A stretch of 42,998 nt of DNA from contig QHUB01000034.1 in NCBI GenBank assembly GCA_003221035.1, positions 1 to 42,998 on the forward strand. Direction: 5' to 3'. A program made the translations under genes and the position numbers. Origin of the DNA: Gemmatimonadota bacterium (lineage in GTDB: Bacteria; Gemmatimonadota; Gemmatimonadetes; Gemmatimonadales; GWC2-71-9). Position 1 is the first letter of the stretch; each line of letters opens with the position of its first letter. The notes beneath the pieces were generated by a model. That model was not told the origin of the DNA and made no database searches. It was given only the letters and a program-made list of their open reading frames with translations. This document shows, in pieces, positions 4,817 to 27,130 of this stretch.

Positions 4817-4844
4817 GTAGGGGCGCAGCATGCTGCGCCCCTAC
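4817..4844. repeat. 28-bp perfect palindrome, copy A (possible terminator)
   Basis: The half-site GTAGGGGCGCAGCA is followed directly by its reverse complement. It begins 2 bp after the recQ stop (TGA 4812-4814). There is no T-run, so it is not a standard Rho-independent terminator. A degenerate half copy, GCAGCATGGCTGGGCCCCTAC, lies at 4854-4874. Near-identical copies occur at 8034-8061 and 24866-24893. Confidence 0.85.
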
Positions 4845-24865: not shown

Positions 24866-24893
24866 ATAGGGGCGCAGCACGCTGCGCCCCTAC
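24866..24893. terminator. 28-bp palindrome, copy C, between convergent genes
   Basis: A copy of the palindrome at 4817-4844 and 8034-8061 with small changes; TAGGGGCGCAGC and its complement flank a central AC (24867-24892). It lies between the convergent Spy-like gene and the duplicated-domain lipoprotein gene and could terminate both. Confidence 0.65.
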
Positions 24894-24903
24894 CCGTTTG
24901 TGG

Positions 24904-25740
24904 CTAGGACAGCGACTTGCTGATCTGCTCGCAGCGACCCAGCAGCGTTGCGCTACCCACGGGCGTCCCGCTCGCGTCCGTGAAGCCCGCGAAGATCCAG
25001 GGATTCCCGCCCACGCCGCCTTGTGACGGCTGTTTGGGGAAGGTCAGGTTCAGACCAGGCGGAATGACCGTGAGGACGTCACTGACGCTCGCCTCATGCG
25101 GTCCACCGACCGGGTTGTCGTTGTTGCGGAAAATGATTCGGAGGCCGAGGCCGTCCATCGTGAGACCGGCGGTCACATCAATGAAGGGACCGGGACTGTT
25201 CTCGCAGCTCGTGATCTCGAACTGAGCAAACCCGGCGCCTGAAGTGCCCTGCCCGCGATTGAAGCCGTAGCGTGTGCCTTGCACGCACCGTCCCAGGAAG
25301 ATCTCGTCGCTCGTCGGATTGCCCTTCGCATCCACAAACTGCACCCAAATGAACGGATTTCCGCCCGTCCCGCCGCGCGACGGTTGTTTCGGAATCACAA
25401 TGGGGCCACCGCTGTTCTGGAAGGAGACGTCTACGACGTTGTCCGCCGTGTAGGTGTGCGTGCCCTTCAAGTTATTCGTGAACGTCATCTCGACGCCGAA
25501 GCCGCCCACGGCCGCAACACCCTCCAGAGTGATCCGCGGTCCGGGATTGTTGGAGCACTGCTCGGCGGTGAAGGTGGCGTTGAGGCTTACGGGAATGGGG
25601 ATGTTCGTCCTGTTGATGTGCGGAAGTGACGACGAAGCAGTCGCGGTCGTCGCCGCGGTGATCCGCTCGGGCGAGGCGCCCGGCTCGTTACACGCCGCGA
25701 GCGCTGCCAGCACAGTCAGCAGGGCAGTGAAGCGTTTCAT
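24904..25740 (-). CDS. Lipoprotein with two tandem copies of an uncharacterised domain
   Basis: A 278-aa lipoprotein: the signal peptide ends at LAALAAC with Cys17. The mature part is two homologous beta-rich units, about residues 62-152 and 179-270. Each begins with a Cys just before NPGP or SPGP, carries PKQPS(R/Q)GG(T/V)GGNP near its middle, and ends in LGRC. One Cys pair per unit (62/152 and 179/270) probably forms a disulfide closing the domain. I do not recognise the domain. The GGAGGGAGG ribosome site before ATG 25740 is strong, so it may be highly expressed. A 10-bp inverted repeat lies just upstream. Confidence 0.8.
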   Translation of the reverse strand: MKRFTALLTVLAALAACNEPGASPERITAATTATASSSLPHINRTNIPIPVSLNATFTAEQCSNNPGPRITLEGVAAVGGFGVEMTFTNNLKGTHTYTADNVVDVSFQNSGGPIVIPKQPSRGGTGGNPFIWVQFVDAKGNPTSDEIFLGRCVQGTRYGFNRGQGTSGAGFAQFEITSCENSPGPFIDVTAGLTMDGLGLRIIFRNNDNPVGGPHEASVSDVLTVIPPGLNLTFPKQPSQGGVGGNPWIFAGFTDASGTPVGSATLLGRCEQISKSLS

Positions 25741-25759
25741 GCATTCCTCCCTCCGTTGT

Positions 25760-25802
25760 GGTGAAAATCAAAATGCGTCGCAGTGAACGGTGGATTTTCA
25801 CC
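25760..25802. promoter_or_regulatory. Inverted repeat upstream of the duplicated-domain lipoprotein
   Basis: GGTGAAAATC (25760-25769) and its exact reverse complement (25793-25802) are separated by 23 bp and lie 20 bp before the lipoprotein start. It may be an operator or a leader hairpin. I see no gene in the rest of 25803-26018. Confidence 0.4.
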
Positions 25803-26018
25803 GGCGTCGGGACAACGGATCAAAAGGGTGTGGCGAGGTTGCGGCCACGGAATTCTTGGTCAAACGTAGTTGCTGTTGGTGCGTTACCTGACGAGGACTT
25901 GGAGCATCTCCTGTCTTCACCCTGTCCTCAAGGATCCCGGGGCGCTGGCGGACCGAGAAGGTGCGCGCTCGCTCCCGGTCTTGGCTTTGTGTGGGTAAGT
26001 TATCGAGCCCGCGAGTTG

Positions 26019-26101
26019 GCCCGAGTGGCGGAATGGCAGACGCAGGGGACTCAAAATCCCCCGGGGGCAACCCCGTGAGAGTTCGACTCTCTCCTCGGGC
26101 A
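26019..26101 (+). tRNA. tRNA-Leu (anticodon CAA)
   Basis: A class II tRNA of 83 nt. The acceptor arm GCCCGAG (26019-26025) pairs with CTCGGGC (26094-26100), followed by discriminator A. The anticodon stem GGGGA/TCCCC encloses the loop CTCAAAA with anticodon CAA (26052-26054), reading UUG. The long variable arm CCGGGGGCAACCCCG-type and the T-loop GTTCGACTC are clear. The 3' CCA is not encoded. A protein gene begins 6 bp later. Confidence 0.97.
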
Positions 26102-26107
26102 TCCGCT

Positions 26108-27130
26108 ATGACGCACCTGTCGGTTGTGGTCCTCGCCCAGCTCGCCGCTGCACAGCACCCGACGCTCCGCGGCGCCATCGTCGCCGCCGAAACGGGTCAA
26201 CCCCTCGGCTTCAGCATCGTGACGTTGCTTCCGAACGGCGGCAGGCAGTTCAGCGACGCCGCCGGAGCCTTCAGCTTTGTCGCCGCCCCCGGATCCTACG
26301 TGCTCAGCGTCCGACAGATCGGCTATGCGCCGCTCGACACACAAATCGTCGTCGGCGACTCCACTTCCGTGCGCATCGCGCTTCGCCGATTGGCGATCGA
26401 GCTGCCCCCAGTCACTATCACGGCGCAACGATGCACGAACCCCGGCCGCCCCGACTCGAGCGATGCGGCGCTGCGCGCGGTGTTCGACCAGCTTCAGGAA
26501 AACGCGCGCCGCTACGAGCTGCTCGCGGACTCGTTTCCGTTCGAATACACGCTCGAGCTCTCCGCCCGTGAAGTGAGCCAGCGCGGCGACACGGGCGATC
26601 CCGTGCGGCGCCGGCTCCACTTCTCGAGCGAGCAGGATCATCCCTATCATGTCGGACGCGTCGTGGAACCGGCGTGGGGCGCCTGGGGAAATCCCGACAG
26701 CTTTGTCGTAATCCACAGCGCCGAGCTGCAGGACCTGGGGAACCCGACCTTCGTCGCGAATCACTGTTTCTCGTTGGCCGGGAGGGACACGATTGGTGGC
26801 GAAACCCTCGTGCGCCTCAACTTCGAGCCTGCCGCCCGGATCGGCTCGGCCGACATAGCGGGCGCCGCGTACCTCGATTCCACCACCTACGAGCTGCGGT
26901 ATACCGAGACGCGACTCACGAGACCCGAGCGCTCCGCGCTGATTGACACGCGCGCGATGAACTTTCGGACCCGGTTCCACAACATCGCCCCGGGCGTTCC
27001 TCTGCAAGATTCATTGATCGTGATTACGACATATCGGTACGGGCCGCGTGCGAAAGTAATCGACGTGCAACGCACTCTCGACGTGCGGTTTCGACGCGCC
27101 AAACCTGGTGGGACGAGCGAACACCCCTGA
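26108..27130 (+). CDS. Exported protein with a carboxypeptidase-regulatory-like domain
   Basis: A 340-aa protein. A short signal-like N-terminus (MTHLSVVVLAQLAAAQ) leads into a CarboxypepD_reg-like beta-sandwich (about 18-95) with the usual GAIVAAETGQPLGFSIV, then SDAAGAFSFVAAPGSYVLSVRQIGY split over two blocks. Such domains sit at the front of many TonB-type and surface proteins. The remaining 240 residues are beta-rich and not recognised. The gene starts 6 bp after tRNA-Leu with no ribosome site of its own, so it may be made from a processed tRNA precursor as a nearly leaderless message. It converges with the 59-aa lipoprotein gene. Confidence 0.8.
   Translation: MTHLSVVVLAQLAAAQHPTLRGAIVAAETGQPLGFSIVTLLPNGGRQFSDAAGAFSFVAAPGSYVLSVRQIGYAPLDTQIVVGDSTSVRIALRRLAIELPPVTITAQRCTNPGRPDSSDAALRAVFDQLQENARRYELLADSFPFEYTLELSAREVSQRGDTGDPVRRRLHFSSEQDHPYHVGRVVEPAWGAWGNPDSFVVIHSAELQDLGNPTFVANHCFSLAGRDTIGGETLVRLNFEPAARIGSADIAGAAYLDSTTYELRYTETRLTRPERSALIDTRAMNFRTRFHNIAPGVPLQDSLIVITTYRYGPRAKVIDVQRTLDVRFRRAKPGGTSEHP

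What the first reader, a model, noticed from the sequence alone, without database searches (positions are those of the whole stretch)
24904..25740. Lipoprotein built of a duplicated, unrecognised disulfide-bounded domain
Two ~92-residue units share a start Cys before (N/S)PGP, a PKQPSxGGxGGNP centre and a closing LGRC. I do not recognise the domain. A strong ribosome site and an upstream inverted repeat suggest regulated, high expression.
Basis: seen in the sequence. Interest (0 to 1): 0.5.

Follow-up and report, generated by a model that had tools for sequence, protein, structure and literature searches.

The report
Mobile two-domain secreted protein, undescribed family
A soil bacterium carries a surface-anchored protein made of two copies of an undescribed, probably disulfide-linked domain; relatives of the same two-copy form turn up patchily in other bacteria and in archaea and have been swapped between genera, which suggests a useful but still unknown extracellular job.

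Summary
The 278-aa gene at 24904-25740 (minus strand) encodes a lipoprotein-type signal and two homologous ~105-residue units, each with one Cys pair (alignment score 183, best of 5000 shuffles 66; profile-profile E 2e-40). Nothing convincing matched in Pfam, NCBIfam, PHROGs, PADLOC or the PDB. Relatives occur in 11 of 102 genomes of the window's family, its own and one remnant included, and in Verrucomicrobia and archaeal MAGs. All 18 rows examined have two units; units 1 and 2 fall on opposite sides of one branch (15 against 15, support 100/98), so the duplication predates the spread. Over 30 units 19 residues are invariant (C, NN, H, KQP..GG.GGNP, GRC among them). The gene sits beside tRNA-Leu, is absent from that site in sister genomes, is decayed in one, and has moved between genera (AU p=0.001). 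Structure models are poor (pLDDT 54 and 56.5); both give seven strands per unit. Regulated high expression is not supported: the upstream inverted repeat occurs once in the genome and in none of 8 relatives. Best reading: an extracellular tandem binding protein, ligand unknown.

The parts
24904..25740 (-). Whole gene, 278 aa plus stop
   Evidence: dN/dS 0.085-0.623 in every pair listed
25690..25740 (-). Signal peptide with lipobox LAAC, presumed lipid Cys C17
   Evidence: read from sequence; Pfam LPAM_1 E 0.02, 15.8 bits, below its cut-off of 20
25270..25599 (-). Unit 1, residues 48-157
24907..25269 (-). Unit 2, residues 158-278
25555..25557 (-). C62, opening Cys of unit 1 (presumed partner C152 at 25285-25287)
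   Evidence: invariant in 30 of 30 units
25204..25206 (-). C179, opening Cys of unit 2 (presumed partner C270 at 24931-24933)
   Evidence: invariant in 30 of 30 units
25354..25389 (-). KQPSRGGTGGNP stretch of unit 1
   Evidence: KQP, GG and GGNP invariant in 30 of 30 units
25000..25035 (-). KQPSQGGVGGNP stretch of unit 2
   Evidence: KQP, GG and GGNP invariant in 30 of 30 units
25746..25754 (-). Shine-Dalgarno-like GGAGGGAGG
   Evidence: read from sequence
25760..25802 (.). Inverted repeat upstream, 10-bp arms, 23-nt spacer; not conserved in relatives
24867..24892 (.). Palindrome between the two convergent genes; its 22-bp core is one of 30 copies in the genome

Best explanation
The gene encodes a secreted, membrane-anchored tandem binding protein. 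After export the N-terminal Cys is lipidated (inferred; +2 is Asn, not Asp, so by the E. coli rule, recalled, probably outer membrane) and two disulfide-closed beta-sandwich domains project outward. In each domain the invariant stretches (C.N, NN...H, KQP..GG.GGNP, GRC.Q) would lie at one end and form a polar surface that binds an extracellular ligand; two copies would give avidity. The ligand is unknown: the invariant set holds N, H, K, Q and R but no Asp or Glu, which suits an anionic or a sugar/amide group. The gene is an accessory cargo, gained, lost and exchanged at one chromosomal site and shared with other soil and groundwater prokaryotes. Shown here: duplication, conservation, purifying selection, patchiness and exchange within the family. 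Inferred: disulfides, fold, pole, binding and ligand class.
For: Internal duplication, older than the spread. 19 invariant residues over 30 units from bacteria and archaea. Two units in 18 of 18 rows, 6 of them cut by contig ends. In 13 of 13 rows Cys lie only in the signal region or at the conserved positions. Purifying selection. Both models give seven strands per unit; with the strands 17 of 35 positions in one set of alternate loops are invariant against 2 of 36 in the other, p 4e-5 (made on the 25 residues invariant in the 15-unit alignment A3). Hydrophobic export signals, read by eye, in the rows with an N-terminus. Exchange between genera, empty sites and a remnant.
Against: No ligand, constant partner gene or functional annotation. 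Both models are poor (mean pLDDT 54.0 and 56.5). With the strand limits of the other model the pole effect is weak (15 of 38 against 2 of 15, p 0.10). The best structural Z of 7.6 is within background for the method. Gly/Asn/Pro-rich invariant stretches could be structural rather than a binding site.
Confidence: 0.45

Rival explanations
1. A structural protein of the cell envelope or surface: the invariant stretches serve stability or packing between the two units or between molecules, with no outside ligand.
For: Of the 19 invariant residues 9 are Gly or Pro and 4 Asn, as expected for tight turns; fixed two-unit architecture in 18 of 18 rows.
Against: Patchy presence, loss and exchange between genera are unusual for a core envelope part; no second gene was found in the window's genome.
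Confidence: 0.2
2. A secreted inhibitor or antagonist, for example of a peptidase, a lysozyme or a competitor's toxin, acting through the Gly/Asn/Pro loops.
For: Single-gene accessory cargo that moves among soil prokaryotes and is lost in some; small domains in tandem with one Cys pair each.
Against: No inhibitor family was listed for any of 10 members in Pfam up to E 1; no toxin or peptidase gene was seen as a recurrent neighbour in the loci read (Pfam was run on 20 neighbours only). The resemblance to chagasin-type loops is recalled, not tested.
Confidence: 0.15
3. An enzyme whose active site uses the invariant His, Lys and Arg with the Asn/Gln residues.
For: Invariant H95, K118, R151, N64, N89, N90, N128, Q119, Q154 (window numbering, unit 1).
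Against: No invariant Asp, Glu, Ser, Thr or Tyr; no enzyme family match of note; the weak structural rows align to sandwich domains of FN3 proteins, cytokine receptors and glycoside hydrolases.
Confidence: 0.08
4. A metal-binding protein with the invariant His of each unit as a ligand.
For: One invariant His per unit.
Against: No invariant Asp, Glu or Met, and the two Cys per unit look like a disulfide pair.
Confidence: 0.05

Closest known systems
Ig-like / fibronectin type III beta-sandwich domains in tandem (for example the FN3 monobodies and GH2 sandwich domains)
   Same: Seven strands in about 105 residues and a tandem arrangement in an exported protein, by low-confidence models.
   Different: No Ig or FN3 family was listed in Pfam up to E 1; Z at most 7.6, within background; the invariant stretches have no counterpart known to me.
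Bacterial surface lipoproteins
   Same: A loose lipobox pattern in 7 of the 9 Gemmatimonadota rows that have an N-terminus, 4 of them also by the strict pattern, and TGAC in the other 2 (strict count made by eye).
   Different: Verrucomicrobia and archaeal members with an N-terminus look like ordinary secreted proteins; G403 is ambiguous.
Npun_F0296 exosortase-dependent surface protein domain (NF050191)
   Same: Weak NCBIfam hit over residues 85-149, E 0.036.
   Different: 14.4 bits against a cut-off of 29, and only 1 of 10 members hits.

Membership tests
Bacterial lipoprotein | Lipobox [LVI][ASTVI][GAS]C at the end of an N-terminal signal peptide (pattern recalled) | tested here: met
   MKRFTALLTVLAALAAC in the window; the Pfam LPAM_1 score is below its cut-off; lipidation itself not tested
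Ig-like / FN3 beta-sandwich | Two-sheet sandwich of about seven strands | tested here: inconclusive
   Seven strands in both models but pLDDT 54.0 and 56.5, no Foldseek hit at E <= 0.001, best Z 7.6
Ig-like / FN3 beta-sandwich | Sequence profile match to an Ig or FN3 family | tested here: inconclusive
   None listed in Pfam for 10 members up to E 1. A single-sequence PDB search gave 7 nanobody sequences, best E 0.0039, not repeated by the unit profile
Npun_F0296 exosortase-dependent surface protein | NCBIfam NF050191 score of at least 29 bits | tested here: not met
   14.4 bits
Chagasin-type inhibitors (I42) | Profile match and the three inhibitory loops | tested here: inconclusive
   No such Pfam match listed for any of 10 members; the loops were compared from memory only
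Anti-phage defence proteins (PADLOC) | Convincing profile match | tested here: inconclusive
   One of 10 members hit HEC-01B at E 0.0044, the window protein none; not followed up

The most novel reading that the evidence does not exclude
An undescribed extracellular domain family, always in tandem pairs, that travels as a single-gene cargo between soil bacteria and archaea, with a near-invariant loop surface. That would mean one ligand shared by the envelopes or surroundings of bacteria and archaea, as expected of a protein for interaction or competition between microbes.
Probability: 0.35. Interest if true: 0.6.

Novelty: new variant of a known kind. Interest (0 to 1): 0.4.

Why it matters
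It is a compact, strongly conserved domain without a library match, present in bacteria and archaea and exchanged between genera at a fixed locus. Conservation this strict in an accessory secreted protein points to one specific target, and one structure with a binding screen could identify it. If it is only structural, it is still a family to annotate.

Tried and rejected
Library matches: nothing convincing in Pfam, NCBIfam, PHROGs or PADLOC. Weak hits in one or two of 10 members: Pfam LPAM_1 E 0.02 and Toxin_4 E 0.23; NCBIfam Npun_F0296 E 0.036 and SfnB E 0.2; three PHROGs of unnamed function, best E 0.18; PADLOC HEC-01B E 0.0044. I take these as chance, LPAM_1 apart. PDB by sequence: 7 nanobody sequences against residues 67-113, best E 0.0039, not repeated with the unit profile (one chain, E 3.3). 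Foldseek with both models: no hit at E <= 0.001. VIA-align reached Z 7.6 over GH2, FN3 and cytokine-receptor domains, within background.

Phage, plasmid or viral origin: no tblastn match in the plasmid and phage collections; in viral contigs 5 stretches matched a peptide pattern but none was confirmed, and a motif pattern gave 0.

Regulation by the upstream inverted repeat: rejected as a family trait.

Hits read and set aside: L007 (G051, E 5.5e-4, two stops), which I judge chance from its translation; L055 (G018, E 0.0035), a protein of other repeats. L089 (G1086, E 3e-4, one stop) may be a decayed relative and was not used.

Rows left out of the 18-row set: L008 and L090 (second pieces of genes already represented, identical where they overlap), L026 (remnant in G249), L033 and L034 (N-terminal pieces in G405 and G404), L091 (fragment in G1106), L089, and duplicate records of the same contigs.

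Literature: two searches for peptide strings found no paper on the family (GGNPWI, IFRNN, four unrelated listings; GGVGGNP, NPVGGPH, IPKQPV, FRNNDN, none). One search listed two grassland-soil metagenome papers (PMC6784897, PMC5103831), of which I saw titles and the start of the abstracts. No paper was opened.

Full report
What is there. The ORF at 24904-25740 on the minus strand encodes 278 residues: a signal peptide ending LAAC (C17), a short linker rich in Ser, Thr and Ala, and two homologous units, 48-157 and 158-278. The halves align with score 183; in 5000 shuffles the best was 66 and the mean 31. Profile-profile comparison of unit 1 with unit 2 gave E 2e-40. Within each of the 12 proteins with two complete units the units are 41-57% identical.

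No known family. Pfam shows only a sub-threshold lipoprotein signal for the window protein. Scans of 10 members in Pfam, NCBIfam, PHROGs and PADLOC gave only weak, scattered hits (listed under Tried and rejected). The PDB search by unit profile gave one chain at E 3.3.

Relatives. A pattern scan of genome contigs found 9 loci: 6 titled Gemmatimonadetes, 1 Verrucomicrobia and 2 Euryarchaeota MAG records. Profile searches found 9 of 395 genomes in a sample of the window's phylum. In the window's family 12 of 102 matched; one of these (G018) is a chance hit on reading, which leaves 11, the window's own genome and one remnant (G249) included. In the family of the archaeal MAG 4 of 22 matched, and in the order of the Verrucomicrobia MAG 5 of 196, one of them borderline with a stop. 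Wider phylum samples gave only the seed genome: 1 of 337 and 1 of 292. The archaeal placement is supported by neighbours in two genomes: an HMG-CoA-synthase-like gene, a thiolase, an OB-fold protein and an HTH gene lie beside the gene in G405 (Pfam) and, by look-alike sequences, in G1066 on a 94-kb contig. In G404 the HTH and synthase genes lie about 9.5 kb away, and G1049 has other neighbours. That this operon is typical of archaea is from my own knowledge.

Architecture and conservation. All 18 rows examined have two unit hits; 6 are cut by contig ends. Over 30 units 19 window positions are invariant: C62, N64, G80, N89, N90, H95, K118, Q119, P120, G123, G124, G126, G127, N128, P129, G150, R151, C152, Q154 (unit 1 numbering). 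The DNPV insert of unit 2 is absent from unit 2 of two Verrucomicrobia members (G1236, G1106), and the archaeal unit 2 lacks the PGP. In a tree of the 30 units the 15 first units are one side of a branch against the 15 second units, support 100/98 (99/99 with 21 units). So the duplication came before the spread. Every pair listed (more than 100 shared codons, unsaturated) has dN/dS of 0.085-0.623.

Export. By the loose pattern used, 7 of the 9 Gemmatimonadota rows with an N-terminus have a lipobox; the other 2 have TGAC. The Verrucomicrobia and archaeal rows with an N-terminus look like ordinary signal peptides; G403 has ALAC inside a longer hydrophobic stretch and is ambiguous. No signal predictor was run. 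In 13 of 13 rows checked, Cys occur only in the signal region or at the conserved positions. Disulfides are therefore likely, not shown.

Locus and mobility. In the window's family the gene lies between a convergent gene that I call Spy-like and tRNA-Leu(CAA), next to a TetR gene and an ECF sigma gene. The Spy-like and anti-sigma labels are my reading; Pfam gave no match for the first and one weak unrelated match for the second. Three further rows (G034, G295, L010, also G380) have one or two extra small genes between this gene and the tRNA; the tRNA lies beyond the contig piece or was not reported for G019. Of the 10 genomes of the genus, 4 carry the gene; G002, G006, G007 and G009 keep the flanks without it, G004 keeps the TetR-to-Spy side, and in G001 the locus was not found. 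tblastn at E 10 found no convincing remnant in the five gaps searched, for G004 only part of the gap. G249 keeps only a remnant of unit 2 there.

Exchange. The G019 copy (another genus) is 81-89% identical to those of G003, G005 and G008, while the Spy-like neighbours are 46-53% identical; the window's own copy is 59-67% identical to these same-genus copies, with Spy-like at 60-67% (identities of local alignments of open frames, some partial). A tree that holds the genus together is rejected (AU p 0.003; p 0.001 with more rows), and so is one that holds genus g26 together (p 0.019). Between G003 and G005 dS is 0.12 for this gene and 0.65-1.07 for five flanking genes. Between G019 and these three the contrast in dS is smaller: 0.61-0.64 here against 0.70-1.57 for the flanking genes, the lowest being the enoyl-CoA hydratase. 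Exchange at the same locus is the simplest reading. Direction between phyla is open: one clade is not rejected for the Verrucomicrobia rows (p 0.19) or the Gemmatimonadota rows (p 0.20).

Structure. The full-length model has mean pLDDT 54.0 and the unit model 56.5. Both give seven strands per unit. Neither has a Foldseek hit at E <= 0.001; VIA-align reached Z 7.6 with sandwich domains, within background. If strands alternate, invariant residues concentrate in the loops of one end: 17 of 35 against 2 of 36, p 4e-5; with the other model's strand limits 15 of 38 against 2 of 15, p 0.10 (on the 25 residues invariant in alignment A3). This is suggestive only.

Regulation. The upstream inverted repeat is real but occurs once in the genome and is absent in 8 of 8 relatives examined. 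The palindrome between the convergent genes is a dispersed repeat with 30 copies.

Conclusion. I read it as an exported tandem binding protein carried as an accessory gene. Binding, ligand and fold remain inferences.

Noticed in passing
window 24869-24890 and 4820-4841: A 22-bp palindrome GGGGCGCAGC-NN-GCTGCGCCCC occurs 30 times in the 3.36-Mb genome, with 0 matches of the reversed control. It may be a dispersed terminator-like or REP-like element.
   Followed up: partly
window 26019-26101 and syntenic sites L076-L080: The stretch beside tRNA-Leu(CAA) varies between relatives: no extra gene in some, a second match to the downstream CarboxypepD_reg gene in G007, and about 2.6 kb between the tRNA and that gene in G006.
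   Followed up: partly
L012, L013, L014, L016, L017, L088: Contigs of six genomes (G003, G005, G008, G404, G405, G1106) end inside this gene. Near-identical copies shared by co-occurring species, or strain variants, may break the assembly.
   Followed up: no
L037 6444-6581 (G249): Remnant of unit 2 in the syntenic place, evidence of loss.
   Followed up: yes
L091 (G1106): A short frame joining the start of a unit 1 to the end of a unit, as if by internal deletion.
   Followed up: no
window 25961-27130: The ORF as listed reads through the tRNA-Leu gene; the real CarboxypepD_reg-like gene probably starts at about 26108.
   Followed up: partly
L015 6876-7670: The Verrucomicrobia relative has a gene with a lysyl oxidase domain nearby.
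   Followed up: no
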